From assembly GCA_030407315.1 (NCBI GenBank), contig JALQPE010000502.1, forward strand, positions 1 to 33,203: a stretch of DNA of 33,203 bases, written 5' to 3'. Below the pieces are notes generated by a model, which searched no databases, was not told where the DNA came from, and was given only the letters and a program-made list of their open reading frames with translations. Source of the DNA: Asparagopsis taxiformis. Lineage: Eukaryota; Rhodophyta; Florideophyceae; Bonnemaisoniales; Bonnemaisoniaceae. Below, piece by piece: positions 2,072 through 21,405 of this stretch. Positions within the stretch are counted from its first letter, which is position 1; each line of letters begins with the position of its first letter. Position numbers and translations under genes: made by a program.

Positions 2072-2741
2072 TAGTTAAGGTTAAGTAACCAACTTTAGGA
2101 TGTCCAGAGGACCTGCTCGTTGTAAGGAATAAGGAATATTGATCAACTGACGAAGAGGAAGCATTTTGAATCGACTAGGGTAGGAACGCAATGAGATTTG
2201 GTATGCAAGAAAACTGAATCGCAGTAGTGAATAGGTAGTTGAAATGAATTCATATTGATGTTCTTTGGTGTATTGTCCATTGGAGCACATTGAAAACCAT
2301 TTATATGATCACCGTTTAAATAGTCTATGAATCCTTTGCAGCCGAGTACGCCAATAGGAAGAAATTCAAGCAGTGGCCTGCACGGGAACCGTTCATTTGT
2401 GAGTAGCAAAAGTTAGTGTAGAAATGAATTTTTCAGACTTGTAGGAGAGGTGGATCGTAGTAAATGTATAAAACTCACGTAGAATCGATTGATAGGAATC
2501 AATGGTACGGAAGAAGAAGCGAGGTGGAGAGTGTGGATGAAATAGGTTGTTGGAATATGAATGATAATTGACGTGGTGAGGTAAACGGGTTCGATTGCAT
2601 TATATGCGCTAGAGGTACATACTATTAGGTGTAGATTGATGGAAAGGGCTAAACGCTTTGTGGAGGTATCAGGATCAGGTAGAGTCAGAGGTGCTGAGCG
2701 GGTGCAGCGTAAGGTTCATCAGGACTGAACGTAGGTAGGGA
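2072..2741. other. Intergenic stretch upstream of first ParB-like gene
   Basis: This is A/G-rich sequence between palindrome cluster C1 and the first ATG. Short minus-strand frames here have no recognisable content. I see no clear TATA box or tRNA. It presumably holds the promoter and 5' UTR of the downstream gene. Confidence 0.4.
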
Positions 2742-6002: not shown

Positions 6003-6223
6003 TGAAATTAGTTCTTAATAGCATTCTATGGCAGGCATCAAGGCCGCCTTCAAGTAAACGATGAAAGTTAGGCTAGTACATGACGTTTGCGTATGTAGAC
6101 GGGTCGAGAGATATACAATACTCAATTTAATATGAGAAGGGGAGGAAACTATGGTGGGCACTACTAGAATAGAACAAGGTAATATCGCAGTCGTCTTTGG
6201 TTACAACATTGAGGTGAGGAAGG
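6003..6223. other. 3' flank of paralogue 1
   Basis: Short AT-rich flank between the stop codon and palindrome cluster C2. It probably carries the 3' UTR. No canonical AATAAA is seen; nothing else is recognisable. Confidence 0.35.
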
Positions 6224-6509
6224 CTTACAGATGATGCAGTTTCGCTGGGGTGCTGACAGCAAAGTCATCGTTACGATGACTTTGCTGTAATGATTTGATT
6301 TCTTACAGCAAAGTCATCGTAACGATGACTTTGCTGTAAGAAATCAAATCATTACAGCGGCCACAATTTTTTACCGGGTAAAAAATTCTTGCTGATTTTT
6401 TTACCCGGTAAAATTTTCTCACCACTGTAATCAAACCTTTCCTTACAGCAAAGTCATCGTAACGATGACTTTGCTGTAAGCATCCCGGGTAAACGGCTTC
6501 GGCTGTAAG
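6224..6509. repeat. Palindrome cluster C2 with inverted terminal repeats
   Basis: Three P1 copies (6253, 6302, 6442), with a P2-type segment carrying two TTTACC(C/G)GGTAAA cores between the last two. The outer edges are inverted repeats of each other: CTTACAG at 6224 followed by GCAGTTT..TGGGG on the left, and the complement of CTTACAGCCGAAGCCGTTTA ending at 6509 on the right. Similarity continues beyond the right edge to about 6610: the reverse complement of 6510-6610 matches the left flank of cluster C5 (12440-12582), including GGACGAAACTCCC and CCGTCCAAACCATC-like blocks. The unit therefore resembles a non-autonomous inverted-repeat element. Confidence 0.9.
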
Positions 6510-6610
6510 CGGTTGGGAGTTTCGTCCGTCTCCCACCCTGGGAAGGGTGAGAAGGGAAGTGTGGAGCCGGGAACATCGTACAACGATGGTTTGGACGACT
6601 GTTGACGGCT

Positions 6611-7050
6611 CTGGGGAGCACTCTGCGTCGTGCAAGCCTGGTTTGCGCTGGCTGCACTACCTGGTATTGAACGGTTCTGTGCGCAAAGTTTACTCATGAA
6701 GGAGTTAGGGTGTTGTGTACCACACCAACCATAGTTACTAACATTTGCAGTGTACTCTAGTGATGTAATTATTATTCTAGTTTCTAGCTATACAATGATA
6801 TTAAGTAAGTCAGATGTGCACAGAGCATGGTCTAAGCCTAGCACGGTAGAGAAAGATGGAAGAAAGATTGAAGGGTAGGCATGCAGAGGTATGAAGGCAG
6901 CAGTATGTGTAGACTATGGCAGTGGTAAGAAAATATTTCATGCACCAAAGGGTGGGTAGAGTGACATTAGAGAGGTGGTGTGTAGGGGGAAGGTAGGTGG
7001 AGATGATGAAGGAGGACAACAGAAACGAGAGCGAGGGTTGAGACCAACGG
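6611..7050. other. Intergenic, no gene recognised
   Basis: About 440 bases between clusters C2 and C3. Short frames on both strands show no recognisable protein. I see no RNA gene or clear repeat. Confidence 0.4.
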
Positions 7051-7374
7051 CTTACAGATGGAGCAGTTTACCAGGGATGCTTACAGCAAAGTCATCGTTA
7101 CGATGACTTTGCTGTAAGGAAAGGTTTCATTACAGTGGCCATGATTTCTTTACCCGGTAAAAAAATTCCTGGCCGCTGTAATGAAAACGTTTTCTTACAG
7201 CAAAGTCATCGTAACGATGACTTTGCTGTCAGGAAACAAAACATTACAGTGGCCATGATTTCTTTACCCGGTAAAAAAATTCCTGGCCTCTGTAATGAAA
7301 CGTTTCCTTACAGCAAAGTCATCGTAACGATGGCTTTGCTGTAAGGATCCTTGGTAAACTGCCTGAGCTGTAAT
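7051..7374. repeat. Palindrome cluster C3, complete 324-bp inverted-repeat unit
   Basis: Three P1 copies (7080, 7194, 7307; the last has one G change) separated by P2 segments. The outer 29 bp are clear inverted repeats. The left begins CTTACAGATGGAGCAGTTTA and continues CCAGGGAT; the right, read on the minus strand, begins ATTACAGCTCAGGCAGTTTA and continues CCAAGGAT. This is the cleanest example of the bounded unit. It ends about 205 bp before the ATG of the second dioxygenase-like gene, so it lies in that gene's promoter region. No convincing target-site duplication is visible. Confidence 0.92.
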
Positions 7375-7578
7375 TGTCGTACAACGAAAAGTGATGTGGA
7401 AGGTTCGGATTGGTCAACCGCTGAATATCATTACCAGGGTGTATACTAATAGGAATATGTCAGATCTCTAAGTTTCGCCTATCTTACTCAGCTTACGCAG
7501 CAAAACAGCTTGTCGTTCAGATCTTCTTCTCTCTTTCTCAATCTTTCACTCTTCGTTTGTCAATCACTCACCAAAGCA

Positions 7579-10500
7579 ATGGCTCAACAATCCCCCAACG
7601 CTTTCGACCGCCAGGTGCGCTCTGCCAGCCGCCGTGACAACGATTCTCCCACTCCTTCTCCCTCTCCTTCTCCCTCTCCTTCTCCTTCTCTGGCCCCCCC
7701 TGTCCCCATGGACGTTTGCGAAGCTGCTGCAGCGCTGACCCAGCTCAGCCCAGCACCTAAGCCCGTCCCCTCCCCCCCTTCCGCTTCCGATCCCGCGGTT
7801 GTCCCGACAATCGACGCTGGCGTTCCCGCAACTCCGCTTCCGGCTCAATCTGCCGAAGCGGCGCCAGCCGTCGAGGGATCTGGTGCTCCTCTGCCCAGCT
7901 CGCCTGCTCCGGACATGATCATCGCGTCCGGCAGCGACTTGGCAGAGGATGCGGAGAAGGTCGATGATCACAACGCTCGTGACATCGTACCGAACAAGCC
8001 TCTCCGCAGCACCAGGCTGGCCTACCCTGGCACAGTGCCCATCCCGGTGGATGTGGACTACGACATAAGTCCGGAGAGCTGCCGAAACATTCCAGTCTTC
8101 ATTTCCCCCCTGGATGTTTCTCCTCCGGCAGTCGTGTCCAGGGTGGTCAGGCCGCATCGCGTTGATGAGTTGAAGAAAACGTTTCTCACTCAGGGATTTT
8201 CCGTGATTGCTTCACGCGTGTCCGTCTGCGAGGTGATTGATTCCAATGCAAAAGTACGACTGCAATATGTCGATGGATCTCACCGAGTGACCGCGTTGAA
8301 GGCCATTCTCGAGTCGGCTGGACCTGCTCCTGCGAAGGACAGTCCAGAGTGGGAGGAGTTTGTCAAGTCTGACATCTACCGTCGCTTTGGAACTATTCCA
8401 GTCGACTTTCTCCTCCCACCGACTCGGCTTGGCCGGGATGTCTTCTGCTCCGAAGAAGTACTCCCGCTTTCACGGCTGATGAACTTCCACACCCACAATG
8501 TCAGCGAGGTAACAGTTGCTGACAATGTGTGCTCTGTGATGGAGTTCATCAATATCCACCGCCTGGGAAAGAAGAAGATCGAGCCGACCGTTCAATACAT
8601 AAAAGAACGGAAAGCGCTGAGCTGGATTCGTCCGAGACAGCTCATGCGCTACGTCTCGATCGCGCGAGGGTTCAAGACCATTGAAAGCCCTGCTTTCAAG
8701 TACTGGTCGAGCATCCCGAACAGGCCGGAGTTCGTGCAGTTCTCTTCGACCGAGGATCTGGCTGGTTGTACGGTGAACTTGTTGTTCAATGGGTCGTTCA
8801 GGAGTGCTCCGGATGTGCAGAAGTGTTTCATCCTGGAGATGACGGCGCGCTACACTTGTAGCCGTCGGTCGGCCGGGCTGAAACCGTACTCGGTTGGTAC
8901 CATTGGGCAGGAATGGATTGCTGGTTTGTTGGAAATCTTCGGGTACGTGAAGGAGGTGGCCGAGTACTGGAACGTGTCGGATGTGTTGAGGATGCTGGAT
9001 GGGTCAATTCCCAGCGTGGGTGACCCGAGCAAGAGCTTCGACATTCGCTCGCGCGTTGTCGAAGTTCTTGCTCAGATGGTCCCCAAGAAGGGGTGCTGGG
9101 CAGACTTCCGTCCCAAGGAAGGCCCCCCCGATGGTTACAGTTACGAAAATATTTTTCCCCGTAAGAAGTCTGTCTTCGGGAAGGACGCCAGGAAAATGCT
9201 CCTGCGCGTCACTGGGTACCGCGACATGCAAATGCGGAAACGCTTTCACGCGATGTACCCAGACATCCCACATGCTGCGCTCCCAGCCACATGTGGTGAT
9301 GATGCCCCCATCCCTTCCTCTTCCAATTCCTTGCCCATCCCTTCATCCTCCATTCCTTTGCCCCCACCACCTCAACTGGAATCTTCCAGCAATTCCGAGG
9401 TTGCCCCTGTTCCTGTCTCTACCCCTGCCGTGTCTGCATCCTCCCCTGCGGTGACCCCGGTCAAGCCGACTGCGCGTGGTCCCCAGGATGGCAGCGAACG
9501 CTCTGGTCCAGTTTCCCACGCCGGGACTGGTACCCCCAACCGTCCTGTCCAAGCCGCGCAGGAGCAGGTCTCACCGGCTTCGCAGCCTGAGCCTGCGACT
9601 CCGGCTGCCGAGCAGCACCCTGCTGCTCCGGCCCCCGCTGTCGAAGCTTCCCGTTCTGCATCTGCTAGCAGTTCGGGAAGCTCCAGCGATGACAGCTTCG
9701 TCCCTTCACCATCCGGTGGGGTTGGACAGAAGACGGTTGCGAGGATTTCGACGGAGGGCCCTACTCCCGAGAATGTGGTCGAGGGCAGCAGTGCGAAGGG
9801 CGGTGCAGATCCTGACGAAGATGTCATTGAAGTCAGTGATTCTGCACCGCCCGGAGTGGAAACTTCTGGGAGGAAAGTGATGCCCAGAAGGAGTACCCGC
9901 CTGCAAGCGAGTCGTTCCGGTCGTGGTGGAACGGCGGGTGGTGCTGTGGAGGTCGTCGAGCTGGAGAGCGCCCCCGAGGATGCGGGTGAAAACTCCATCC
10001 TCGGGAAGCGTAACTTGGAAGCCGCTTCTGCGACGCCCGAGCCTTCTACCAAAAAGAGAAGGCTCGGTGAGACTTCATCAAAGTCGTCGTCAAAGAAATC
10101 CAAGTCGGCTTCCCGAGGTCGCTCTCGGGAGCCGGTTCTCCAGTTCGACGACGCCCAGGAGAATCCCATTCCCGACAGCATCGTCGATGAGAATGTGGCC
10201 GCCGTTCTCCCCAGCGCAATTGCGTCTGGCAGCCGGATGAAGTACTATATGGAAAGTACGACGGTGGAGACGGTTCGGGCGGAAATGAGGGCGGCAGCAT
10301 TCCAGGCAGCTGCATCGCCGGGTGCTGAGGATACGGTGGTGGACAGGTACTTTGCGGTGAAGAAGGCATTGTTGGAAAACTTGGGGGTTATTGTTATGGA
10401 AGGCCTGTTGGCATCGTCCACGGCTGGTAATGCGACGCATGAGTTGTTCGGTCACTTCGCTAGGCAGTTCCCGCTGGTTGAGGAGGTTGAAAAACCCTCC

Positions 10501-11226
10501 CAGCAGTCTGATTCTAACGATGACGACAGGGAGCCACAGGACGAGCCGCCAGCTTTCGCAAAGCCCGGCTTCGATCCTTCGCCGTGGCAGTTCATCCACA
10601 ACGTGGGTGATGCGAAGGACCGCATCGATGGTGGTCGTGGGCGCCTCTCTCTGCCGCGGCGTGAGTTGTGCGACAAGTTGGAGGAGGGGAATTTGGAGAT
10701 GTATAAGAACAAGTTGGTGGCAGAGCTTGCTCTTGGTGTTTGTGCGGAGTTCTTGAAGTTGGGAATGGAGGGTGAGGATCCTGTCTTCTTCCCGAAGACA
10801 GGATTGCGGCTGCTTCTTACAGCAGATGGGGCTGCGGACCAGGATGGGCACACGGACTTCAAGGTAGCGACGAATAGTGTTGGAAGTCCTACCACGTCTC
10901 CATCATATTTCATGATGTCGAGCGGAGCCGATGGGTTCTCTATAGTAGTTGCCCCTTATAGTCATGTATGCCTGGCCAGTCCGGGCGCCGATATGTGGAA
11001 GGTTCCCCCTCTCATCTTTTGGGTGCCACCCTATTCCGTATTGGTTGGTCGCGGTGACCTTTACCATTACGGGGTCGGCTTCAGCCGAGGAGATCTTCCT
11101 GCAGGCGAGAAGTTAGTCTATGGCCTGCCCACGCGCGGCCACATCTACTTGAAGACGGAGAAGGACGTCCTCACGGACCACATCCACACCGTCGAATATT
11201 ACAAGTACGATAGGAGCAATAGATAG
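7579..11226 (+). CDS. ParB-like domain protein with C-terminal 2OG-Fe(II) dioxygenase-like domain (paralogue 2)
   Basis: A 1215-residue protein counted from the ATG at 7579 (GCAATGG context, after a pyrimidine-rich leader). The frame stays open upstream to 7510 but has no earlier ATG. Residues 1-150 are Ser/Pro/Ala-rich with an SP dipeptide run. The ParB-like domain is about 175-330, with DGSHR at 232-236 and NFHTHNVSEVTVADNV near 300. A long low-complexity linker carries basic KKRRLGE near 825. The C-terminal beta-helix dioxygenase-like domain (about 890-1200) has HTD at 1091-1093, His1163 in LYHYG and Arg1186 in PTRGH. The SPSYFMM..GADGF block is shared with paralogue 1, so the two are tandem duplicates. 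The coding sequence is visibly more GC- and Pro/Ala-rich than paralogue 1, suggesting old divergence or different composition pressure. The reaction is predicted oxidation of an unknown, perhaps nucleic-acid, substrate. Confidence 0.88.
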   Translation: MAQQSPNAFDRQVRSASRRDNDSPTPSPSPSPSPSPSLAPPVPMDVCEAAAALTQLSPAPKPVPSPPSASDPAVVPTIDAGVPATPLPAQSAEAAPAVEGSGAPLPSSPAPDMIIASGSDLAEDAEKVDDHNARDIVPNKPLRSTRLAYPGTVPIPVDVDYDISPESCRNIPVFISPLDVSPPAVVSRVVRPHRVDELKKTFLTQGFSVIASRVSVCEVIDSNAKVRLQYVDGSHRVTALKAILESAGPAPAKDSPEWEEFVKSDIYRRFGTIPVDFLLPPTRLGRDVFCSEEVLPLSRLMNFHTHNVSEVTVADNVCSVMEFINIHRLGKKKIEPTVQYIKERKALSWIRPRQLMRYVSIARGFKTIESPAFKYWSSIPNRPEFVQFSSTEDLAGCTVNLLFNGSFRSAPDVQKCFILEMTARYTCSRRSAGLKPYSVGTIGQEWIAGLLEIFGYVKEVAEYWNVSDVLRMLDGSIPSVGDPSKSFDIRSRVVEVLAQMVPKKGCWADFRPKEGPPDGYSYENIFPRKKSVFGKDARKMLLRVTGYRDMQMRKRFHAMYPDIPHAALPATCGDDAPIPSSSNSLPIPSSSIPLPPPPQLESSSNSEVAPVPVSTPAVSASSPAVTPVKPTARGPQDGSERSGPVSHAGTGTPNRPVQAAQEQVSPASQPEPATPAAEQHPAAPAPAVEASRSASASSSGSSSDDSFVPSPSGGVGQKTVARISTEGPTPENVVEGSSAKGGADPDEDVIEVSDSAPPGVETSGRKVMPRRSTRLQASRSGRGGTAGGAVEVVELESAPEDAGENSILGKRNLEAASATPEPSTKKRRLGETSSKSSSKKSKSASRGRSREPVLQFDDAQENPIPDSIVDENVAAVLPSAIASGSRMKYYMESTTVETVRAEMRAAAFQAAASPGAEDTVVDRYFAVKKALLENLGVIVMEGLLASSTAGNATHELFGHFARQFPLVEEVEKPSQQSDSNDDDREPQDEPPAFAKPGFDPSPWQFIHNVGDAKDRIDGGRGRLSLPRRELCDKLEEGNLEMYKNKLVAELALGVCAEFLKLGMEGEDPVFFPKTGLRLLLTADGAADQDGHTDFKVATNSVGSPTTSPSYFMMSSGADGFSIVVAPYSHVCLASPGADMWKVPPLIFWVPPYSVLVGRGDLYHYGVGFSRGDLPAGEKLVYGLPTRGHIYLKTEKDVLTDHIHTVEYYKYDRSNR

Positions 11227-11640
11227 CATATCAGAAGTATTAAAACCTATACTACTGTTCCCTGCTATAAAGTTCTGTCTTTCTCATCTCAACATTGTTA
11301 CCTTAGCCCATTTTTCAGTTCTCATCTATACATCTGTCCTTCATCTCATAGTTTAGTGCTACTCAGCAGATTGCTTGCTACTTTTTAATATTAGTCTACA
11401 ACGTTATATGATTTTACTAGCTAGGCCGTAGGGGGAGACTAGTTTCAACCCTTGACAACGCGCAGATTTCGACTACGAGAGCCGTCACTGTGATAAATTA
11501 TTTGTAGAATTTTCGTCTATCTTCCCACCTACACTAGGCTACCTATATATATACAGGGTATAACCTGAACAGAGACCACGTGAGGTAAAATACTCCTGAG
11601 AGCTGCTCACAGCCGTACAGACCTTTGCTGAGCAATTTAC
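11227..11640. other. 3' flank of paralogue 2
   Basis: Pyrimidine-rich noncoding stretch with a short TATATATATA run near 11545. I see no gene, RNA or palindrome copy here. Confidence 0.4.
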
Positions 11641-12050
11641 CCGACTTCAAACTTCGCTTCTTACCTTTACCAGGATGAGAGAAGGACGAAACTCCCTGCT
11701 GCTTACAGCCGAAGCCGTTTACCAGGGTTCCTTACAGCAAAGTCATCGTAACGATGACTTTGCTGTAAGGAACCGTTTCCTTGCAGTGGCCGAAGAATTT
11801 TTTACCGGGTAAAAAATCAGCAAGAAATTTTACCGGGTAAAAAATTGTGGCCGCTGTAATGTTTTGCTTTCTTACAGCAAAGTCATCGTTACGATGACTT
11901 TGCTGTAAGAAAACGTTTCATTACAGCGGCCACAATTTTTTTACCCGGTAAAGAAATCATGGCTGCTGTAATGATTTGTTTTCTTACAGCAAAGTCATCG
12001 TAACGATGACTTTGCTGTCAGCACCCCGCCGGAACTGCCAAAGCTGTAAG
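11641..12050. repeat. Palindrome cluster C4 with inverted terminal repeats
   Basis: Three P1 copies (11731, 11871, 11983) with central base A, T, A, separated by P2 segments. The inner unit 11702-12050 is bounded by CTTACAGCCGAAGCCGTTTA on the left and a diverged inverse on the right (minus strand CTTACAGCTTTGGCAGTT). The left flank from about 11641 (CTTCAAACTTCGCTTCTT, then GGACGAAACTCCCTGCTG) is also present left of cluster C5. Most of the C4 interior is nearly identical to 12763-13014 in C5, pointing to recent duplication or homogenisation. Confidence 0.9.
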
Positions 12051-12330
12051 CAGTCTGGCTTCACCCTCTCCCCCATTTCTCTACTCCGCCTTCAGCATCC
12101 CAGCCTCTCTGGTGACGACTGACGCCTTTCGTTTCCCCCCTCACGCCCCCTCTCGCAATGAAATACTCGTCTATTACCACGATAGGCTACTCGTACTGCC
12201 GCCTTAATTTTCCTCTACACACACCCTCCCATCCGTCTCTTCCGTACTACGATCTTAGGCTATCCTACCTTACGATTATAGTTGTATAGTGAGTAGCTAG
12301 AGTCCTACTTATTGACGACTATAGTGCACC
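12051..12330. other. Intergenic, no gene recognised
   Basis: Pyrimidine-rich stretch between cluster C4 and three consecutive perfect or near-perfect palindromes. Nothing recognisable is seen. Confidence 0.35.
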
Positions 12331-12420
12331 GGAACCGGCGCCGGTTCCCGCCCGGGCGGGTTGAATATATATTTTATGCCGTGAGGCACAGGTACCATAT
12401 GGTCGCTGTGGCTCACGGCA
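12331..12420. repeat. Three consecutive palindromes
   Basis: GGAACCGGCGCCGGTTCC (12331-12348) is a perfect 18-bp palindrome. It overlaps CCCGCCCGGGCGGG (12347-12360), a perfect 14-bp palindrome. After a short AT-rich spacer comes a 44-bp inverted repeat (12377-12420) with TGCCGTGAG/CTCACGGCA ends and an ACCATATGGT centre. They share no sequence with P1 or P2. They could be protein-binding sites or the centre of a foldback element; the function is unknown. Confidence 0.85.
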
Positions 12421-12504
12421 CAAGGAGTAGATTTTGCGACCAACAGCCGTCCAAACCATCCTCCCGTGATGTTCCCTACTTCACACTTCGCTTCTCATGT
12501 GAGA

Positions 12505-12582
12505 CAGCAGGGAGTTTCGTCCTTCTCCCATCTTGGTAAAGGTACCTTTACCAAGAAGGGAGAAGGACGAAACTCCCTGCTG
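12505..12582. repeat. 78-bp near-perfect palindrome at left edge of cluster C5
   Basis: Arms 12505-12543 and 12544-12582 are reverse complements with a single mismatched pair. The arm begins CAGCAGGGAGTTTCGTCC and the centre is GGTAAAGGTACCTTTACC. The right arm runs directly into the CTTACAGCTGAAGCCGTTTA terminal repeat of cluster C5, and the same arm sequence flanks C4 and, inverted, the right edge of C2. This looks like two element ends joined head to head. Confidence 0.92.
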
Positions 12583-13043
12583 CTTACAGCTGAAGCCGTT
12601 TACCAGGGTTCCTTACAGCAAAGTCATCGTTACGATGACTTTGCTGTAAGAAAACAAATCATTACAGCAGCCACGATTTCTTTACCGGGTAAAAAAATTG
12701 TGGCCGCTGTAATGAAACGTTTTCTTACAGCAAAGTCATCGTAACGATGACTTTGCTGTAAGGAACCGTTTCCTTGCAGTGGCCAAAGAATTTTTTACCG
12801 GGTAAAAAATCAGCAAGAAATTTTACCGGGTAAAAAATTGTGGCCGCTGTAATGTTTTGCTTTCTTACAGCAAAGTCATCGTTACGATGACTTTGCTGTA
12901 AGAAAACGTTTCATTACAGCGGCCACAATTTTTTTACCCGGTAAAGAAATCATGGCTGCTGTAATGATTTGTTTTCTTACAGCAAAGTCATCGTAACGAT
13001 GACTTTGCTGTCAGCATCCCCGGTAAACGGCCCGCACTGTAAT
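12583..13043. repeat. Palindrome cluster C5, 461-bp inverted-repeat unit
   Basis: Four P1 copies (12612, 12724, 12864, 12976) whose central base alternates T, A, T, A, with P2 segments between. Outer inverted repeats: CTTACAGCTGAAGCCGTTTA at the left and, on the minus strand at the right, ATTACAGTGCGGGCCGTTTA. The cluster ends about 275 bp beyond the 3' end of the minus-strand methyltransferase-SET gene. Confidence 0.92.
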
Positions 13044-13318
13044 GGGGTGACTGCTTCTCCTACATCGCTCTGTTACTGGTGTTCTACATGCTGCGTTGCT
13101 ACACAATTTCGCACTCACATCTTTCTAGTTTCTCTCCCTTTCGTATCCATAGGTATAGCAGTTGAAAAGTGGATAGTTTGCACTCCAGGCCGCAGATGCC
13201 TTCCTGCAGTCATGTCACGATTGTTGTAGTGTAGTCTATAATATCTAGCGCTCTTGGAAGATGATGCACAGTCTATTGTCTCTGTCAATGCGTGTTTACT
13301 CAAATCTATCAAAGTAGC

Positions 13319-16300
13319 TCAGTTAGCTGGCCAATATTTTCTACCATAGTCAGCAAATATCTCCTCATCAGCTTCAACGTCTCTGGTCAGAACGACCTTG
13401 ACAGCATGGGGATTCTTGATATTCGAAGCAAAGTCCGGTTTGTCTATGGCATCGCCTTGTCGAAACTCGGCTGACTGTGTTCGACTCACCTCGGTCGCTT
13501 TCTCCGTTCCGTCAATGACCCGACAATCATTGAGGTAGCTGGTACAATTATAGACCGCTGGAACGAGCCAGACCTTCCGAACAGGTGCACCCCTCCCTAT
13601 GTACGTGGTTTCCAATTCCATGTTGTAGTCCTGGAACCTCTGTCCTGTGCACCCAAATCCTTCCGGGCCGTACATCACTGATCTCTGCGGTTCCGAGTCT
13701 CGAATCTTCGCATAGAAAATCGTCCCGTTGTACCAGCCAATGACCGTCCCCTTCTTCAGTTTCTTCGCCGCGAATACGCCAAACCCACCACCTCTTACCT
13801 CCGATTGCGAAACATAGACACCGTAGAATGCGGCATCAGCAGCCAGAATCGCGTCCGGGTCTATGCTCCAAAACGAGTGCATGTCCTCGGCCGGCCACTG
13901 GTCCATAGGCACCCCGCTCAATCTGTGAAGCATAGAACCGTCCTTCTTCATTGACGCAACGAACACAAGCAGATGGTTCGGCAATGCTGTCACAGCAGGT
14001 AAACCTTCTGGTGCATCTGAGATGTGCTTCTGACGAAGCCTTGGAGCTTTTCCTGTGACCGGTACCGACTCGTCCCCAAGAATACTCTCCACCTCACGCT
14101 GCAAGATCCCCCCATATCGCCCGGCTTTCACCTCACTGACGAAAGCATGCAGTATCCACTCCTGCGATGCATCGTGGCACCTTTTTTCCTTCTCACACCC
14201 AATGAACCGACGATACGTACCATCCCTCAACGTCATACACGCTATGGCTGTGCTGTATGTTCCCGAGAAGAAATCCATCACGATATCGTTCTGCTTCGAA
14301 AATCGTTCCAGAAGCTCACGAAGAGTGGTCAACGCCTTCTGCTCATGGCGCAGTCGGTTGTTCTGCCCATCGTATTGAGCTTCACCAGCCGACAACCTCG
14401 GAACGTTGTCAATCGCGTTGGTGAACCCAGGGTGCCTCGATATGTCCGGATTGTGCAACCTGTAATCCACCATATCGTATGCAGCCATACCCTTCCCCCG
14501 CTTATACGCATGGATAACGAAATCGTGCATATTATGCAGTGTGCACGTTTTCGTCGATGGATTGGACGTAAAGCTGTGTGGTCGGCGAGATAGCACGACT
14601 GGAACACTGTCCACAATCATCTTGCCAGGCTCGGCATTTCTGATTGCATCCATCCATGCCACGAGTTGGCGCACGCTGGAATAGATTAGAGCATGACCGC
14701 CAGGCCGAAGAACTCGAACTATTTCACACGCAACACTCGCCAACTCTTCCGGCTCCAGAATATCGTACTCCGAGTTTTCTCTGCCGCCTTCCCGCCTCGT
14801 GTTGAATGGAGGATCAGTGAGCACAAGCTGAACACTGTCCTCCAACACGCCATCTTCCAGGAAACTAATTTTGTCCTCCACCTCTTTGGCTACATCAGTG
14901 GCGTCACAATTCACAGTGTGAATGTAACGCCCCATCACAGCTTCCAGCTTGGTGACATATTCCGGCTTGGATTCCTTTCCGACGTCAACGAGCGGTGCTT
15001 CTGTAGGCGATACAGTGTCAACCTCCATAGCGTCATCCTCGGCCGCACCTTCTCTTGTTGCTGTTTCGCTAGCAACCGCCGCATTATCGTCCTCTCCACC
15101 ACCGCGCTCCAGCCTAGCCTTCTTCCTCTGTGGCTCCAGACTATCCTCTTCTATATCCTCGCTGCCATTGTTTGGCACTGCTGCGGATATTTCCATCTGC
15201 GCAGGTGCACCTTCAAGGATGCCAGGCTCGGGCGTATCCTCAAGACTGTGCAACTCATCCATGGTCAGAGGAAGCTTTCGTTGCTCTCGGGTTCGCAATA
15301 ACCAAGCCTTCAGCCTCCTCTGACCATCCAGGGCATGAGACGTGTTCAACTTGGCTCGCATGAACGAGTTCAATCCGAACTTGTCAGGAGTGTCGAAAAG
15401 CAAGGCTCGAAGTCTCTGCATCAGCTGACCACGCTCGGCGAACACATTCACCTCAGTGACACATTGGCGTATCGACAGCAGGAAGGCGCTTGTCAATGAT
15501 CGCAGCCTTGCATCCACAGCCACTGGAAGGTCGGCACAGAACCCGTTTTCACTGTCTACAGTTTTCGGGACAATGGTCAGGTTTTTCCGATGCTCCTCGA
15601 CCGCGCAGCCATCAGACCGATTCGGGAGTGACCTGAAGCAAAGGCTCGCAGGATCGAATACCATGAACGGCCAGCACATCGATTCAACATCCTCATACCC
15701 CAACACTCTTGCCCCGGTATCCCACGCAGCTAACACACGGTCGACAACAAATCCAAGCTGGTTGGCTTGCGCACTGGATGTTGCAATTCCAACCATTCCA
15801 CCACCACCAATGGCCCCGGATGTGGCTCTGGCCCGCCTAGATGGCGCACTGCCCATCTCCTTACTGCGAATAGCCAAGATACACTGGCACATCATAACCA
15901 TCAGCCTCCTGAACCGCTTCTGGCTAGCCTGCAAAGAATCTTGCATGTCGGATGTAGCGCCGTCTAGAAAGTACCTGCTCGAAAGCAGTTCGCGGTTCAG
16001 TGGAGAGGACAATTCTCCGCGGGGTGTCTTGCCAAACATTTCGACGGCACGAGAACTAGTCACCCCCACCTGTTTCGGAAACTCAACCATCCTCGGAGAA
16101 TCACCCATCTCTGCATTGAGTCCCCATGCATGACAAAACATTTGCCACAGACGCAAATCAATCGCACTCGAATCTTCTGCTCGGTGATACGGCCGAAGCA
16201 CAGCCAGGATAGACATGCATGAGCTGTACTGCGGTTTACCACTCAGGCTTGAAGCAATTTGGCCGCTTGGATCGCAGGACTTGATCCAGCCCAACACATC

Positions 16301-16786
16301 GGCCATCCTCACAGACGAAATATGAGCGTACTTGTCCTTTCCTTTTTGGACCCAGTACTCGTCTCTGAGATCAACGGCGATCATCAGATACTCAACAAAC
16401 ATCATGCGCCTTTGCAGGCCTGCAATGTCGTTGGATGTCGTCGCTCTCACACGGTCCAGCACAACAGCAGTACTGCTGTTGGTGTCCGCCACGATAGACT
16501 CTTCTCGCATAGGAATCGTAACGCCAGGAGGAAAGACGCCCTTCTCCATTCCACGTACAATTGCCATGCAGCGGTGCGCTCCATCCAATATCTCCAGAAC
16601 GCCTTCTCGAAACCTGCCAGTCACGGGATGAGCTGTGTCATAACCGCTGTTGCGAATGCTCTCCATGAGCGCTTCCACATGACTTGCATCAACATCGCGA
16701 ATCGATACGAATTTGCTGACTTGATTGGGGTCGATGAACACCCATCCGTCGTGCTTTTCACCGTGATTGTGGAACGTTCCTTCCAT
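13319..16786 (-). CDS. ParB-like - DNA methyltransferase - SET domain fusion protein
   Basis: A 1155-residue intronless frame starting at the ATG at 16786 (perfect GCCATGG context; upstream in-frame TTG at 16795 not used). Residues about 15-150 are a ParB-like domain with DGAHR at 68-72. A long unassigned region follows, then an acidic linker with basic QRKKARLER near 552. A beta-class amino-methyltransferase follows: motif IV DPPF at 658-661, VLRPGGHALIYSS after it, and motif I FFSG at 839-842. The IV-before-I order and DPPF favour adenine-N6, but cytosine-N4 cannot be excluded. The C-terminal SET domain (about 990-1155) shows GGGFGVF from 999, YLNDC at 1084-1088 in the place of the usual NHS-type motif, and DYGRKYW near the end. 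Predicted activities are DNA methylation and lysine methylation of a histone or other protein in the nucleus. No pre-SET or post-SET cysteine cluster is seen. It is divergently placed from the gene at 17300. Confidence 0.9.
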   Translation of the reverse strand: MEGTFHNHGEKHDGWVFIDPNQVSKFVSIRDVDASHVEALMESIRNSGYDTAHPVTGRFREGVLEILDGAHRCMAIVRGMEKGVFPPGVTIPMREESIVADTNSSTAVVLDRVRATTSNDIAGLQRRMMFVEYLMIAVDLRDEYWVQKGKDKYAHISSVRMADVLGWIKSCDPSGQIASSLSGKPQYSSCMSILAVLRPYHRAEDSSAIDLRLWQMFCHAWGLNAEMGDSPRMVEFPKQVGVTSSRAVEMFGKTPRGELSSPLNRELLSSRYFLDGATSDMQDSLQASQKRFRRLMVMMCQCILAIRSKEMGSAPSRRARATSGAIGGGGMVGIATSSAQANQLGFVVDRVLAAWDTGARVLGYEDVESMCWPFMVFDPASLCFRSLPNRSDGCAVEEHRKNLTIVPKTVDSENGFCADLPVAVDARLRSLTSAFLLSIRQCVTEVNVFAERGQLMQRLRALLFDTPDKFGLNSFMRAKLNTSHALDGQRRLKAWLLRTREQRKLPLTMDELHSLEDTPEPGILEGAPAQMEISAAVPNNGSEDIEEDSLEPQRKKARLERGGGEDDNAAVASETATREGAAEDDAMEVDTVSPTEAPLVDVGKESKPEYVTKLEAVMGRYIHTVNCDATDVAKEVEDKISFLEDGVLEDSVQLVLTDPPFNTRREGGRENSEYDILEPEELASVACEIVRVLRPGGHALIYSSVRQLVAWMDAIRNAEPGKMIVDSVPVVLSRRPHSFTSNPSTKTCTLHNMHDFVIHAYKRGKGMAAYDMVDYRLHNPDISRHPGFTNAIDNVPRLSAGEAQYDGQNNRLRHEQKALTTLRELLERFSKQNDIVMDFFSGTYSTAIACMTLRDGTYRRFIGCEKEKRCHDASQEWILHAFVSEVKAGRYGGILQREVESILGDESVPVTGKAPRLRQKHISDAPEGLPAVTALPNHLLVFVASMKKDGSMLHRLSGVPMDQWPAEDMHSFWSIDPDAILAADAAFYGVYVSQSEVRGGGFGVFAAKKLKKGTVIGWYNGTIFYAKIRDSEPQRSVMYGPEGFGCTGQRFQDYNMELETTYIGRGAPVRKVWLVPAVYNCTSYLNDCRVIDGTEKATEVSRTQSAEFRQGDAIDKPDFASNIKNPHAVKVVLTRDVEADEEIFADYGRKYWPAN

Positions 16787-17299
16787 GGCGAACAAAGGTA
16801 GAGTTTTTAAGAAAGGGATAGTTGGTTGCTGCTTGACCAGGGTGGCGCAAAGCAGAAGTTGGTTGTTTAAAACAAAGTGTCAGCGAGTGGTAGCACTTCG
16901 GTGGCTGTTTCCTTTCCACCCCTGTCCGAACCTTTACAAGATAACTACATCGACTGTTAGCTCAATAATCAATGTAATACTAAAGTAATACTCAAAATAT
17001 TTTTCCATGCAATTTATTGGGCCCCGTAACATCTCTAAGCGTATCTTTGTAGTCCAATCGTATGCATCCGACATTCACTTCTAGAACGATTATTCACATC
17101 AAATTTTATGCTGCAATCAGTTCATGGCAGACATCATCCACACTGACGTGTCAATTTTGTCAATTGTCCATTCTATTTCTACACCACCTAAACATCTCTT
17201 CTGGACCTTTCCAATCCTCCTAGTATATACTACTCTTTAGCAGAAGGTAACGGTTAGGCTTTCACTAATACAACAATTCTATCCCATAGCTATCCCAAC
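16787..17299. promoter_or_regulatory. Divergent intergenic promoter region
   Basis: 513 AT-rich bases separate the start codons of the minus-strand methyltransferase-SET gene and the plus-strand gene at 17300, so both promoters should lie here. A TATATA-containing stretch at about 17222-17232 sits roughly 70 bp before the plus-strand ATG and could be its TATA box. No P1 or P2 copy is present. Confidence 0.4.
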
Positions 17300-18661
17300 A
17301 TGCTTCCTCTCGCTCCAAACGACGTTATAGAAGTTCAATGGGAACTTCGGCCGTTTGGGAGGAAACGAAAAATTGTGTGGTGGTCTGCAATCGTCAAGGA
17401 AATTACTCAGGTCAAGACCGAAACAGACCCATTCCTCCATGCATTGCTCGAATACAAAGCTGAATATGGTTTCGACTCTACCCTTTCTCAAGTCAAGATT
17501 TCAGATCGTAACGAGCTCGTCGACAAGGATTCCGGAAGGGTTCTCCCGTGGCGAAGTGGTGAGCTTCGCAGTATGGACTCACCTGCATCCCCAGCAGAGA
17601 GAGACCCGGACTACGGCATTGACCACACTCGCCACCGCCACCGCGGCATCCTTCAAGATTGCACTGCGGATCAAATGAAGAAGACCATAGCAGAAATGCT
17701 GGCAAGATTGGAAAAGCTGGAGTCAGCTGCCAAACATCCTCTTCCCCCTCCATTCGATTCCAACAGCTCCATGACCTCCTCTGCTCTGACTGTATGTAGC
17801 ATTCTGTTTCAGAAGCTTGGTGTGTACACGGACAAGCCCCTCTCCCTCCGGATGACAAAATCCGAGCACTCCAGGGGAATGCGACAAACATCGCAAGAAG
17901 AAATCAGAGTACAGGCTGACTGCTCCCTTGCTCAATTCCGCACTATTGCCATTCAATGCAAGGCGAAAGAGAATCGTGATGTTCTCTTCCTGCCGTCCTT
18001 TGAGGACATCACCTTTCCCTCTGGAAATGAGTCGGATCTTTCCATCATTTTCCCCACCTTTCAGGCACTATGTGACTCCATAGGTACCTCGCAACACGGG
18101 TTCCAGAAAATATTGGTGAAGAGCAGGGCGGAACGCGATGGAGGCAGCTCATCGATTGTCCGAATTTTAGGAAATCTAGTCGACGTTGACTGCTCTCATG
18201 ATGCTCCTTCTTCCGCATTTCTCGTCGGCTCATCTGCTTACGTCCTGTCCAGCCCAGACCAACGTATGACAGTTCTTTGCAGAGACTCCTACGAGTTTGA
18301 CCATGTCAACAATACATTTTTACATCCCCTATGTCTTAGCCAACTATCACAGTCTAGCATCGTGGACTCTTTCCACCTACGTGATAAGGCTACTGTTACT
18401 TATGGAGCAACGTTTTCGTTACTGTGGAGACGTATTCAGCGCCGAGCTTGTTACAGCACTTTCCAGCCTCTATCAACCGCAGAGACGTTTGGTACACTAC
18501 ATCTACGCTTACCTTGCTGTATTTTCAGTGGTACTACTATATGCCAGGAGCTTGAAGACATTGGCTATGAGGCTATCTCTCGTCTTGGCTTCAATGCGGA
18601 TTCAGACACTACCCACCCACCCTCTCCTCCACCTGCCACCTGCAGTCCGGAGCAAAAATGA
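17300..18661 (+). CDS. Unrecognised protein, possible N-terminal Tudor-like domain
   Basis: A 453-residue frame from an ATG with A at -3. I do not recognise the family. Residues about 8-90 have a pattern recalling royal-family folds: VIEVQWELRPF, WWSAIVKEI, then LLEYKAEYGFDSTLSQVKI and LPWR. A short helical stretch (KKTIAEMLARLEKLE) lies near 125-140. The remainder has no recognisable motif. The last 130 residues overlap a second open frame (18297-18710), so a frameshift or short intron near 18300 is possible and the C-terminus is less certain. It is divergent from the methyltransferase-SET gene and convergent with the gene at 18937. If the Tudor-like reading is right it could be a methyl-lysine or methyl-arginine reader, which would suit a SET-domain neighbour, but this is inference. 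Confidence 0.6.
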   Translation: MLPLAPNDVIEVQWELRPFGRKRKIVWWSAIVKEITQVKTETDPFLHALLEYKAEYGFDSTLSQVKISDRNELVDKDSGRVLPWRSGELRSMDSPASPAERDPDYGIDHTRHRHRGILQDCTADQMKKTIAEMLARLEKLESAAKHPLPPPFDSNSSMTSSALTVCSILFQKLGVYTDKPLSLRMTKSEHSRGMRQTSQEEIRVQADCSLAQFRTIAIQCKAKENRDVLFLPSFEDITFPSGNESDLSIIFPTFQALCDSIGTSQHGFQKILVKSRAERDGGSSSIVRILGNLVDVDCSHDAPSSAFLVGSSAYVLSSPDQRMTVLCRDSYEFDHVNNTFLHPLCLSQLSQSSIVDSFHLRDKATVTYGATFSLLWRRIQRRACYSTFQPLSTAETFGTLHLRLPCCIFSGTTICQELEDIGYEAISRLGFNADSDTTHPPSPPPATCSPEQK

Positions 18662-18936
18662 TAAAGCACACCTATCCGTAGTTATCCTGTTCCTGGGTAT
18701 TCCATTCTAGAGCTCCTGTGGCCATCAATTTCTAGTAAAGACGGATACCCTCGCCCCTTCCTACTTCGACTATTCCACTACCTGTCTCTGCGCTGTTCCT
18801 TCGACTTGACACTATCGTCTGACTGGTTTCCTGATGTCTCGCACCTATCTACTTCCATCTATTACAAAATTCACCTCAACAGAAATTTTATTTCTTCATT
18901 CTTCGTCTACTACACCGAAACTGGTTTCATCCGATA

Positions 18937-20463
18937 CTACTCCCCTTCATTCTCGATTTCATCATCGACGAATACCTTCACATATTCTGCATCTCCTCCG
19001 TCCTCTTCCATAGACCTGAAGCTCTCCTCCAGCACTGATTCCCCCCCATCGTCTACGTTCAGTTCTTCATATCTATCACGCGATATAGTCAAAACCTCCT
19101 CATTCATGAACCGACTACTCACCCGCTCCCCGGGAAGAAGCAGTTTCACTGCTTCATTGATTTCCCGGATTTGCGCTCCTTCCACCTCTGTTCCACTTTG
19201 AAATTTCAAAATCGTTCGGAACCCGTATGCAAGTATGTAGATGAATTGCAAGGAGTATTCTGAACGTCGCAGGAACATGTTCTTATCAGAACATTGCGTG
19301 TAGGCGACTGCAAAGTTCAGTGCAACCTCTACTAAATTGATCCTCCTAGTCAAAAACCTCTTGTCCGGTTCTCCAATTATTTGAACTTCGTACTCGACTT
19401 TGAATAGCATTTCTTTTCGCACTGCAATGAAGTCGCGAAGAATCTTCATATTCTTGTCATCCATTGCTGCACGCTCCGCTGCATTCATTTTCCTCTGCGC
19501 CGAGTACAGACTTGGAACTGACTCAATGTCCAGCCCACCGTCGTGCAAATGATGCTCCATTCGGACTGAACCTTGAAACCCACTGTATAGAACGAATCCA
19601 AGATCTCGGATGAACCGGTTTCGCACATGATCTCTGGACTTGTTCATAAACCCGGTCACTGCTGTGAGTGCCGATTTCGTCACAGTGATGCCTACCTCCT
19701 TTCTGTGCAACGGCCCATTGTCTCCAACCTTTCTTCGCTTCTGCTTTCGAGCGGCCCCATCACTTCCCTCGGACGTCCCATGCATTCCATCCATGCGAGC
19801 AGAGTCCGTTCCGCGAATTGTCTCCTCAATGGTCCCGGTAGTCACATACCCCCGCGCCCTCCACCGTTCGATACCTTCCGACGTTCCATTGGAGCTGGAA
19901 CGGTCTCCTCCCTCTCTGAAAGAATTGTTTTGACACGTATTCTTGATTAAAGAGGTCACAACTTGGCAGCGCAATTCAATGTGGTTCCGGCCGGCAAGCG
20001 TCCTATTGAACACATCCTTTCGCTCATTGCTCTGCCTGGCGAACATCAGCGTATTGATTAGCTGGCATCCGTTGAAATGCCTATCCCTCTTATCCACCAT
20101 TGCCTTCGTGTACGTTGGAACAACAGCACACAGCACAGCACACACCATTTCGAACGTGAACGATTTCTCCGCATCCTGCGCAATGCGGAGACGTTCCCTG
20201 TCCTTCTCGGAGGCGATCTTCTTCGGATGTCCTTGTCCCTGGCTCAGAAGCCCATCGACGATGCTCTTGACCTCCTGCATATCGGTGTTTAGCATGGAGA
20301 CAGTCTTGGCGACATTTCCGAGAGTCTCGCGTAATTGAATGGTGCTCTTCTCGACGGCATCCATTTTATCACTCAGGGCTTTCAACTCTGCAGTGATGTT
20401 CGAAAAGCCCTCACGCGTTATTTCGGAAAATGCGGCGATGCTTACGGAGGTTTCGGGATTCAT
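18937..20463 (-). CDS. Unrecognised coiled-coil protein
   Basis: 508 residues from the ATG at 20463 (A at -3). The frame stays open upstream to 20517 but only through a GTG. Residues about 12-70 have heptad-like spacing of hydrophobics typical of a coiled coil (ITAELKALSDKMDAVEK and onward). Residues about 80-180 are helical-looking with conserved Cys and aromatic positions. A Gly/Ser/Arg-rich linker lies near 185-260 with basic KQKRRK. Residues about 270-450 form a second probable globular region, and the C-terminus is strongly acidic. No enzyme motif is visible. It is convergent with the plus-strand gene ending at 18661, leaving 275 bp between them. The long clean frame and the ordered coiled-coil/acidic-tail architecture support a real gene; the function is unknown. 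Confidence 0.65.
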   Translation of the reverse strand: MNPETSVSIAAFSEITREGFSNITAELKALSDKMDAVEKSTIQLRETLGNVAKTVSMLNTDMQEVKSIVDGLLSQGQGHPKKIASEKDRERLRIAQDAEKSFTFEMVCAVLCAVVPTYTKAMVDKRDRHFNGCQLINTLMFARQSNERKDVFNRTLAGRNHIELRCQVVTSLIKNTCQNNSFREGGDRSSSNGTSEGIERWRARGYVTTGTIEETIRGTDSARMDGMHGTSEGSDGAARKQKRRKVGDNGPLHRKEVGITVTKSALTAVTGFMNKSRDHVRNRFIRDLGFVLYSGFQGSVRMEHHLHDGGLDIESVPSLYSAQRKMNAAERAAMDDKNMKILRDFIAVRKEMLFKVEYEVQIIGEPDKRFLTRRINLVEVALNFAVAYTQCSDKNMFLRRSEYSLQFIYILAYGFRTILKFQSGTEVEGAQIREINEAVKLLLPGERVSSRFMNEEVLTISRDRYEELNVDDGGESVLEESFRSMEEDGGDAEYVKVFVDDEIENEGE

Positions 20464-20985
20464 CTTGACCTTGCAATTGGAGTTTGCTAAAAGGAGAATT
20501 GCTTTGAAGGATGTCACGCTTAGTACAGCAGTGTTGTAGCAAATATCATTTCAGTGGATGCATCCATCCTGGTCTACTCTACATAATAATAATGCTTCCC
20601 AGTGCTCCGTAACGGTTATTTTTCATAATTTAGTGGTGGATGGTGCGTATTCTTTCCTTTGCCACCACCCACGTCCTGTGCATACCACACCTCGCTACCA
20701 GACTGACGTCTCCTACTAGACACTTTCAATGCAAAGATAGATAGGTATAATTTGAAATGCTAAACTCAACATATTATAGCTACTATGTACATTCTCTCCT
20801 TACGGTGAGACAAACCAGATATGTTCTGTTCTCCCAATCTTCCTTTCTCCAACGTCCTATTCAGCATCTAGCTTCCCCGCACCCAACTATCTGTAAAGCA
20901 CCATCACAATTAATATAGTCGTATACCACACACCATTCCAATATTTACCTTCACACCAACACTATGCTCCATATTTCCTCTAAGT
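20464..20985. other. Intergenic, no gene recognised
   Basis: AT-rich upstream region of the coiled-coil gene. Nothing recognisable is seen before the palindromic array that begins about 20990. Confidence 0.35.
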
Positions 20986-20989
20986 CCAC

Positions 20990-21348
20990 TCCACCAGACA
21001 GTGTTGTCAAACAATGCACGGTACTACCCGCAGACAATACAATTTGCTATCTACACTACTGTCTACAGATTTCCCCAGACAGTGCAGTAATACAGTACAA
21101 TGTATTGTCTCAGACAGTAAAATGTACTGTCTGCACATACTGTCTGGCGGCAACACTTCCGGACAGTAAAATTTACTGTTCTGGACAGTAAATTTTACTG
21201 TTTTTGGTACTGTCCAGATTTCGTGCCAGTTTACTGCTGCAGCAGTATTCTGAAATTTCCAGACAGTAAATTTTACTGTCTCCGCGCACTGTCTTGGCCA
21301 GACAGTAATTTTTACTGTCTCAGACAGTAAATTTACTGTCTGTTTTCA
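20990..21348. repeat. GACAGT palindromic array, left copy
   Basis: Dense GACAGTAAA and TTTACTGTC half-sites, many joined as palindromes such as GACAGTAAATTTTACTGTC. More than a dozen ACAGT/ACTGT half-sites fall within 360 bp, with irregular spacing. The same half-site builds the array at 31589-32340. The right edge runs into CTCAACACCGTAGTGGTACA, whose inverse occurs at the left edge of the other array. Confidence 0.88.
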
Positions 21349-21405
21349 TTCTCAACACCGTAGTGGTACAATCAGCCTAGCTGTGGGGCAACCCTATATT
21401 TTCAC

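What the first reader, a model, noticed from the sequence alone, without database searches (positions are those of the whole stretch)
13319..16786. Single protein joining ParB-like, DNA methyltransferase and SET domains
The sequence shows DGAHR (ParB-like), DPPF then FFSG (beta-class methyltransferase motif order) and GGGFGVF/YLNDC/DYG (SET) in one uninterrupted frame. Bacterial-type amino-methyltransferases captured by eukaryotes are known, including a rotifer N4-cytosine enzyme with a chromodomain. A fusion writing both DNA and protein methylation, with a ParB-like module in front, is not an architecture I know. It would couple two chromatin marks in one polypeptide.
Basis: partly seen in the sequence, partly recalled or inferred. 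Interest (0 to 1): 0.92.

Follow-up and report, generated by a model that had tools for sequence, protein, structure and literature searches.

The report
Transposon-borne DNA-and-histone methyltransferase fusion
One unbroken gene joins a ParB-like domain, a DNA-methyltransferase domain and a SET (lysine-methyltransferase) domain; it is cargo of a jumping DNA element about 26.6 kilobases long, occurs at least 40 times unchanged in one genome, probably that of a red alga, and its protein would likely write two kinds of methyl mark on the element's own chromatin.

Summary
In detail: window 13319-16795 (-) is one intron-free frame (1155 residues from ATG 16786) with a ParB-like N-terminus, an N6_N4 DNA methylase domain and a SET domain. 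It is neither an assembly join nor a host chromatin gene. The gene has at least 40 copies (the window's included) at 100% protein identity and is cargo of a ~26.6-kb DNA transposon with CACTACGGTGTTGA inverted ends, repeat-filled subterminal regions and a 1267-residue putative transposase. Two sister genes in the same element carry a ParB-like motif and a dioxygenase-like C-terminus. The genome holds two further MTase-SET families. A capped database search found ten relatives besides a near-identical copy, one annotated in Chondrus crispus; five of 13 aligned proteins have all three domains. Prior art exists: ParB-MTase accessory proteins in brown, red and green algal transposons are published. 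A SET domain is not mentioned in the main text of the paper I could search, but the key red-alga paper was not held. Likeliest role: a self-marking or anti-silencing writer that would be aimed by its ParB-like domain at palindrome arrays carried by this element and probable kin; activity, target and chromatin effect are untested.

The parts
1..21365 (.). Part of a CACTA-type DNA transposon held in the window; its left end lies before window position 1 (whole element about 26.6 kb in copy C1830:136190-162819)
   Evidence: 10 of 10 fetched right-side flanks lose homology at the same place (9 at w21365, L019 at 21367); of 10 left-side pieces 4 run colinear to w3287-3323, 2 reach their contig end first (L011, L024) and 4 break off (L014, L018, L020, L021); left terminus in L029:3191
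21352..21365 (-). Right terminal inverted repeat; reverse complement reads CACTACGGTGTTGA
   Evidence: Same 14 bases at the left terminus in L029
21032..21342 (.). Subterminal palindromic repeats (AGACAGTAAAATTTACTGTCT type)
   Evidence: 19 inverted repeat pairs in 20400-21400; GACAGT/ACTGTC 16 in the right 1 kb and 36 in the left 1 kb versus 2 in a 1-kb mid-element control
1..1406 (+). 3' part of the putative transposase gene, frame broken in this contig-end copy; an intact frame of 1267 aa is L035:70-3870
   Evidence: 37 of 37 scored copies at 100% identity, the query's own included; no Pfam match; transposase role inferred from position and recalled motifs
1525..2046 (.). Array of 39-bp palindromes CTTACAGCAAAGTCATCG...CGATGACTTTGCTGTAAG
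2742..6002 (+). ORF B, 1086 aa: ParB-like DGSHR N-terminus and a dioxygenase-like C-terminus (HTD ... YHGG)
   Evidence: no Pfam match and no convincing PDB match for the C-terminus
6256..7347 (.). Second palindrome array
7453..11226 (+). ORF C, 1257 aa stop to stop: paralogue of ORF B (34% identity over 334 aligned N-terminal columns)
   Evidence: 37 of 37 scored copies at 97-100% identity, the window's included
11724..13014 (.). Third palindrome array, between the convergent ends of ORF C and the MTase-SET gene
13319..16786 (-). The ParB-like / DNA MTase / SET gene, 1155 residues
16475..16735 (-). ParB-like domain, residues about 18-104, with DGAHR
14162..14833 (-). N6_N4_Mtase domain, residues 652-875, with DPPF, RHEQK and DFFSGT
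   Evidence: Pfam E 2.3e-16; fold matches to N6-adenine MTases E about 5e-8 from a low-confidence model
13343..13786 (-). SET domain, residues 1001-1148, with GGGFGVF, YLNDC and ADYG
   Evidence: Pfam E 4.2e-6; profile matches to SET chains 8sr6, LegAS4, KMT5A/SETD8 and SETD7, E 2e-4 to 4e-3
17300..18661 (+). ORF D, 453 aa, unknown
   Evidence: no Pfam match; lies inside the element
18937..20517 (-). ORF E, 526 aa, unknown, coiled-coil-like N-terminus
   Evidence: no Pfam match above cut-off; lies inside the element
31560..33203 (+). Left end (CACTACGTTGTTGA and repeat arrays) of a second copy running off the window
   Evidence: Matches L029:3191-5244

Best explanation
The frame is a cargo gene of a giant, recently amplified CACTA-type DNA transposon, and its product likely works as a self-marking writer: a ParB-like domain predicted to bind the element's own palindrome arrays, a DNA methylase predicted to make N6-methyladenine there, and a SET domain that would methylate a lysine, probably of a histone, on the same chromatin. 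Shown: three fused domains, high copy number, element ends, colinear cargo, palindrome arrays concentrated in the element, and conservation of MTase motifs across distant relatives. Inferred: the base product (DPPF/DPPY suggests 6mA), the lysine substrate, DNA binding by the ParB-like domain, and the purpose, which I take to be keeping the element expressed and mobile (anti-silencing), perhaps together with the two dioxygenase-like sister proteins.
For: Copy number and youth: 40 of 40 scored copies (the window's included) at 100% protein identity; seven other copies compared with the window's base by base show no change over 3474 bp; flanks differ between copies. Element ends: 14-bp inverted termini starting CACTA and dense subterminal repeats. 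Colinearity: MTase-SET and ORF C together at about the same spacing and in opposite orientation on 14 contigs (the window's included), MTase-SET and the putative transposase on 9 (positions). Architecture: MTase and SET matched in 13 of 13 aligned family members at E <= 0.5; ParB-like N-terminus in 5 of 13, all 5 matching phrog_1033. Conservation: DPP[FY], EQK and F-GT motifs in 13 of 13; the SET N-D pair in 11 of 13. MTase and SET trees share three pairs, one trio and the six-row group around the window protein; F3 changes sides, so the two domains mostly travelled together. Palindromes: 35 ACAGCAAAGTCATCGT half-sites, all inside the element and outside its genes, none in the other 11.8 kb of the window; none in 13 of 14 stretches beyond copy ends (limits in the full report). 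A viral contig encodes ParB_N + N6_N4_Mtase in one protein (L036), the likely prokaryotic form of the module.
Against: No activity, binding, transcript or methylation data. The ParB-like call misses Pfam, and a profile of five N-termini finds no ParB structure in the PDB. Eight of 13 members show no clear ParB-like N-terminus (P0005 is a fragment, P0010 may be one), including F2, which has at least 57 copies in the same genome, so ParB is not essential to the family's success. The SET NHSC histidine position is Asp (N-D), and P0010 and P0011 have lost that pair and the C-terminal Tyr. The structure model is poor (mean pLDDT 34). Only 3 of 10 and 2 of 10 inner branches of the domain trees are strongly supported. 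The transposase has no detected family, and no clean target-site duplication was found (C1830 flanks CCT/CAA; C1569 flanks share only TA).
Confidence: 0.5

Rival explanations
1. The fusion would be a repressor: it marks its own or competing elements for silencing (copy-number control), with SET-made lysine methylation as the silencing mark.
For: SET writers commonly mark repeats (recalled); the genome holds at least two MTase-SET families in high copy that nest in each other.
Against: Copies are many and unchanged, which suggests recent unrestrained transposition; no silencing data.
Confidence: 0.2
2. The methylation would serve transposition itself: marking new versus old copies or licensing the ends for the transposase, as Dam methylation does for some bacterial elements (recalled).
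For: Palindrome and subterminal repeat arrays are cis sites carried by the element and its kin; the gene keeps its place beside the putative transposase on 9 contigs.
Against: Does not explain the SET domain; the 39-bp palindrome arrays are internal, not at the ends.
Confidence: 0.15
3. The gene is a passenger: a captured host or bacterial methyltransferase fusion carried without use to the element.
For: Giant algal transposons carry accessory genes that are mostly of unknown function (PMC12477816, passages).
Against: Methylase motifs are kept across family members as little as 22% identical to the window protein, while linkers diverge; three divergent versions of the scheme in one genome.
Confidence: 0.1
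4. Assembly or annotation artefact joining three separate genes.
For: Found on a contig whose left end has a broken transposase frame.
Against: Same frame in 40 of 40 scored copies, in a separate record (P0001) and in relatives at 46% or less.
Confidence: 0.01

Closest known systems
ParB + DNA methyltransferase accessory protein of the Ectocarpus Sola1-1_Ec32 transposon (1104 aa, 21.5 kb element; PMC12477816, abstract and passages)
   Same: ParB-like and N4/N6 DNA methylase domains in one protein, on the strand opposite the transposase, in a giant algal DNA transposon; those authors already propose self-binding and self-modification
   Different: Two domains are reported; the term 'SET domain' does not occur in the paper's main text; host element is Sola-1, not CACTA-type
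Giant EnSpm elements of red algae (Petroll et al. 2025, Bostrychia moritziana genome; cited in PMC12477816; paper itself not held)
   Same: Giant EnSpm elements with several accessory genes in red algae; cited for proteins similar to ParB-MTase; I recall its abstract naming giant Plavaka elements
   Different: Cannot be compared: text not available; it may already describe the SET fusion
Chondrus crispus 'adenine specific DNA methyltransferase' (P0009, 1000 aa)
   Same: N6_N4_Mtase + SET in one protein, same family (30% identity over 72% of the query piece)
   Different: No ParB-like N-terminus; SET end reads DYI, not DYG; genomic setting not examined here
TET/JBP-carrying DNA transposons of fungi (PMC12730594, abstract and passages)
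   Same: DNA transposons, EnSpm and Plavaka among them, carrying their own DNA-modification enzymes, proposed to escape silencing
   Different: Dioxygenases that oxidise 5mC, not MTase-SET writers; the dioxygenase-like C-termini of ORFs B and C here are not shown to be TET/JBP
SET-carrying HarbingerS and MuDR transposons of Phytophthora (cited in PMC12730594, Kojima and Jurka 2014, not read)
   Same: A transposon encoding a SET lysine methyltransferase
   Different: No DNA methylase or ParB-like domain is mentioned in the passage read
ParB_N + N6_N4_Mtase protein of a viral contig (L036, IMG/VR)
   Same: ParB N-terminal domain followed by a beta-class DNA methylase with DPPF
   Different: 549 aa, no SET; sequence identity 28% over the MTase only
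Rotifer N4CMT (Adineta vaga)
   Same: Bacterial-type amino-methyltransferase in a eukaryote; its structure matches the MTase domain (E 1.4e-5)

Membership tests
CACTA/EnSpm-type DNA transposon | Terminal inverted repeats starting CACTA | tested here: met
   CACTACGGTGTTGA at both ends
CACTA/EnSpm-type DNA transposon | Subterminal repeat arrays | tested here: met
   16 and 36 GACAGT/ACTGTC per terminal kb versus 2 in a control kb
CACTA/EnSpm-type DNA transposon | 2-3 bp target-site duplication | tested here: inconclusive
   C1830 flanks CCT/CAA; C1569 flanks ATA/TAG, share TA only
CACTA/EnSpm-type DNA transposon | Recognisable EnSpm or Plavaka transposase | tested here: inconclusive
   1267-aa ORF, 37 of 37 scored copies at 100%, no Pfam match; only an insignificant local match to a Plavaka ORF in L013 (E 0.11 and 0.16)
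Beta-class N6-adenine DNA methyltransferase | Pfam N6_N4_Mtase with DPPY/F before FxG | tested here: met
   fold matches to N6A enzymes
Beta-class N6-adenine DNA methyltransferase | Makes 6mA in DNA | not testable with these tools
   Needs assay or long-read data
SET lysine methyltransferase | SET domain above Pfam cut-off with catalytic Tyr | tested here: met
   27.6 bits, cut-off 22.4; ADYG present
SET lysine methyltransferase | N-H pair of the NHSC motif (motif recalled) | tested here: not met
   YLND here; N-D in 11 of 13 family members; effect on activity unknown
SET lysine methyltransferase | Methylates histone lysine | not testable with these tools
   Needs assay
ParB-like domain | ParB-like profile match with GxHR-type motif | tested here: met
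   phrog_1033 in 5 of 5 N-termini, best 3.4e-6; but no Pfam ParB_N match and no ParB chain in the PDB search
ParB-like domain | Binds inverted-repeat DNA sites | not tested
   Palindrome arrays present; binding is inference
2OG-Fe(II) dioxygenase (ORFs B and C) | Detectable family or structure match plus HxD...H...R | tested here: inconclusive
   HTD and YHxG present in B and C; no Pfam match and no relevant PDB match; model unusable, pLDDT 32

The most novel reading that the evidence does not exclude
Red-algal giant transposons carry a self-contained epigenetic kit: a ParB-like-guided protein that writes DNA N6-methyladenine and lysine methylation on the element's own chromatin at parS-like palindrome arrays, together with two ParB-like dioxygenase sister proteins that remove or oxidise marks. 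It would be a transposon that plants its own chromatin state with a prokaryote-derived addressing module.
Probability: 0.3. Interest if true: 0.88.

Novelty: new variant of a known kind. Interest (0 to 1): 0.64.

Why it matters
Red algae are little studied for chromatin marks, and 6mA in eukaryotes is disputed (both recalled). A gene in at least 40 unchanged copies that encodes both a DNA methylase and a SET domain, next to dense candidate address sites, makes the question directly testable: where this element sits, long-read sequencing should or should not show 6mA, and chromatin profiling should or should not show a lysine mark. It would also be a clear case of a mobile element bringing its own DNA and histone writers in one polypeptide.

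Tried and rejected
Host chromatin gene: rejected, because at least 40 identical copies exist and those examined share element ends. Assembly join: rejected. LINE-like 5' truncation, suggested by variable left ends: set aside. Of the four broken left-side pieces, L014 and L018 abut other CACTA-type ends at w8377 and w8546, which fits nested insertion; L020 (w5327) and L021 (w8437) are unexplained breaks.

Plavaka transposase for this element: not established. L013 holds a clear Plavaka ORF (E 1e-24), but in the flank; the element's own ORF gives only an insignificant local match. Dioxygenase identity of ORFs B and C: motif only, no profile or structure support; ORF C found no relative in the protein database among the candidates scored. 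P0003 against 50,697 phage records gave one weak match, to the MTase only.

Naming the host by rRNA failed because the genome tool did not complete; 'red alga' rests on the Chondrus relative and the literature, not on a direct test. A genome-wide scan for the palindrome was asked for six times and never answered; specificity is therefore judged on the window and 14 fetched stretches only. The first whole-protein database search found only the near-identical P0001, so the family was seen only with the three-sequence profile.

Absence claim: a fused SET with MTase or ParB in a transposon was not found in the listings or in the passages, in an open-access library that lacks Petroll et al. 2025; Iyer et al. 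2011 was not looked up.
Full report
What is there. Window 13319-16795 on the minus strand is one open frame. From the first ATG at 16786 it encodes 1155 residues. Pfam finds N6_N4_Mtase at residues 652-875 (E 2.3e-16) and SET at 1001-1148 (E 4.2e-6), both above the curated cut-offs. The N-terminus has the ParB-like DGAHR signature; Pfam is silent, but PHROGs finds ParB-like families there, and when the N-termini of five family members are scanned all five match phrog_1033 'ParB-like partition protein' (best E 3.4e-6). A five-sequence profile found no ParB structure in the PDB, so this domain is the weakest of the three assignments.

It is transposon cargo. The window lies in a 141.5-Mb genome of 3156 contigs. 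The protein has 40 of 40 scored matches at 100% identity there, the window's own included (the tool scores only the best candidates, so this is a lower bound). Seven other copies compared with the window's show no difference over 3474 bp, while flanks differ. All 10 fetched right-side flanks lose homology to the window at the same place (nine at 21365, L019 at 21367), where the sequence ends in CGTAGTG. Of 10 left-side pieces four run colinear to w3287-3323, two reach their contig end, and four break off earlier. The left end was found in copy C1830: CACTACGGTGTTGA, the same 14 bases as the right end reversed, giving an element of about 26.6 kb (C1830:136190-162819). Both terminal kilobases are crowded with GACAGT/ACTGTC repeats (36 and 16, against 2 in a control kilobase). 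CACTA ends and subterminal repeats are hallmarks of CACTA/EnSpm elements (recalled). A clean target-site duplication was not seen: C1830 flanks read CCT and CAA, C1569 flanks share only TA.

Anatomy of the element. In order: left repeats; a 1267-residue putative transposase (L035:70-3870; 37 of 37 scored copies at 100%; no Pfam match); ORF B; ORF C (37 of 37 scored copies at 97-100%); the MTase-SET gene on the other strand; ORF D; ORF E; right repeats. MTase-SET and ORF C lie at about the same spacing and in opposite orientation on 14 contigs, and MTase-SET and the transposase on 9. ORFs B and C are paralogues with a ParB-like motif and a C-terminus carrying HTD and YHxG, which looks like a 2-oxoglutarate dioxygenase; this rests on motifs alone and the structure model was unusable.

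Candidate address sites. Twenty of the 22 long palindromes found in the window lie in the element outside its genes (nearly all in spacers, one in the right end region), one lies in ORF C and one at the left end of the second copy; five letter-shuffled versions of the window gave 0, 0, 0, 0 and 1. The main one, a 39-bp palindrome CTTACAGCAAAGTCATCG...CGATGACTTTGCTGTAAG, forms arrays at 1525-2046, 6256-7347 and 11724-13014, which hold all 35 exact half-sites of the window. Of 14 stretches beyond the ends of copies (71 kb) 13 had none and one, L014, beside another CACTA-type end, had 7. These stretches are not a pure control: L014, L015, L018, L022 and L027 hold pieces of other copies or kin, and L033, not counted, resembles the arrays beyond another CACTA-type start. 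So the arrays belong to this element and probable kin; how far beyond them they occur is unknown, because the genome-wide scan did not complete. Bacterial ParB proteins bind inverted-repeat parS sites (recalled), so these arrays are natural candidates for what the ParB-like domains recognise. No binding was tested.

The family. The genome holds a second MTase-SET family (F2, mostly a 1084-aa open frame; 57 of 57 scored matches at about 100%) and a third (F3, L034), 24% and 27% identical to the first. F2 has no ParB-like N-terminus and F3 only a stretch resembling the beginning of one, in another frame. A profile of the three found 11 proteins among the 7995 candidates scored from a database of 5.8 billion (capped): the near-identical P0001, and P0002 to P0011, among them P0009, annotated 'adenine specific DNA methyltransferase [Chondrus crispus]'. 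In the 13-row alignment (the window protein, F2, F3 and P0002-P0011; P0001 left out as near-identical) every row matches both N6_N4_Mtase and SET at E <= 0.5. DPP[FY] and the EQK motif are kept in 13 of 13, the SET N-D pair in 11 of 13; P0010 and P0011 have lost it and the C-terminal Tyr of SET. Five rows have the ParB-like N-terminus. Trees of the MTase and SET domains share the pairs window/P0002, P0004/P0005 and P0010/P0011, the trio P0007-P0009 and the six-row group around the window protein; F3 changes sides, the pair P0003/P0006 appears in the MTase tree only, and only 3 of 10 and 2 of 10 inner branches are strongly supported. The fusion therefore looks old and has mostly travelled as a unit.

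Where the parts come from. By sequence and by a low-confidence model the MTase is nearest to bacterial N6-adenine enzymes (M1.HpyAVI, CcrM, TTHA0409). The 21 viral loci confirmed with the family profile match the MTase region only; one, L036, is a ParB_N + N6_N4_Mtase protein. So a ParB-MTase module exists outside eukaryotes, and SET looks like the later, eukaryotic addition. This is inference from distribution, not a dated event.

How it likely works. The protein would be addressed to the element by its ParB-like domain and write a DNA mark and a lysine mark there. Plant and fungal transposons are known or proposed to counter silencing with their own proteins (VANC of VANDAL elements, start of the abstract of PMC10398659 in the listing; TET/JBP, abstract of PMC12730594). 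By that analogy I favour an anti-silencing role, at about even odds overall. Silencing or copy control and marking for transposition remain open.

What is known. [quoted passage not shown] 'SET domain' does not occur in its main text. It cites Petroll et al. 2025 for giant EnSpm elements with accessory genes in red algae; that paper is not held. The present case is thus a variant of a reported kind. The added parts are the fused SET domain across a family, the palindrome arrays, and two ParB-like, dioxygenase-like sister genes in the same element. Whether Petroll et al. already describe these I could not check.

Noticed in passing
window 2742-6002 and 7453-11226: Two sister genes with a ParB-like motif and a dioxygenase-like C-terminus (HTD ... 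YHxG), possible partners of the MTase-SET protein; a third, divergent relative lies in L029:1-1539, its frame ending before the YHxG part.
   Followed up: partly
window 1525-2046, 6256-7347, 11724-13014: Arrays of a 39-bp palindrome in the element's gene-free stretches; array length differs between otherwise near-identical copies (L001, L007, L024).
   Followed up: partly
window 21406-26261: Ty3/gypsy-like retroelement with integrase core (Pfam rve) and a chromodomain match below the Pfam cut-off, apparently broken into several frames.
   Followed up: no
L013:590-2527: ORF of a Plavaka transposase (Pfam E 1e-24) in the flank of one copy, so the host carries Plavaka elements too.
   Followed up: no
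L010:3123-5486 and L032:242-3493: Second MTase-SET family with no ParB-like domain and at least 57 copies; one copy is interrupted by the first element, so the two families nest.
   Followed up: partly
L019 minus strand, bases 4214-5440 of its reverse complement: Stand-alone ParB-like protein (409-aa frame, ICDGLHRH) near the third MTase-SET gene.
   Followed up: no
P0010 and P0011: Family members whose SET domain has lost the N-D pair and the C-terminal Tyr while the methylase motifs stay intact; the SET part may be dead there.
   Followed up: no
L027:5429-5430: One copy is inserted into another copy of the same element (at w20545), showing self-nesting; the far side does not resume the same target.
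   Followed up: partly
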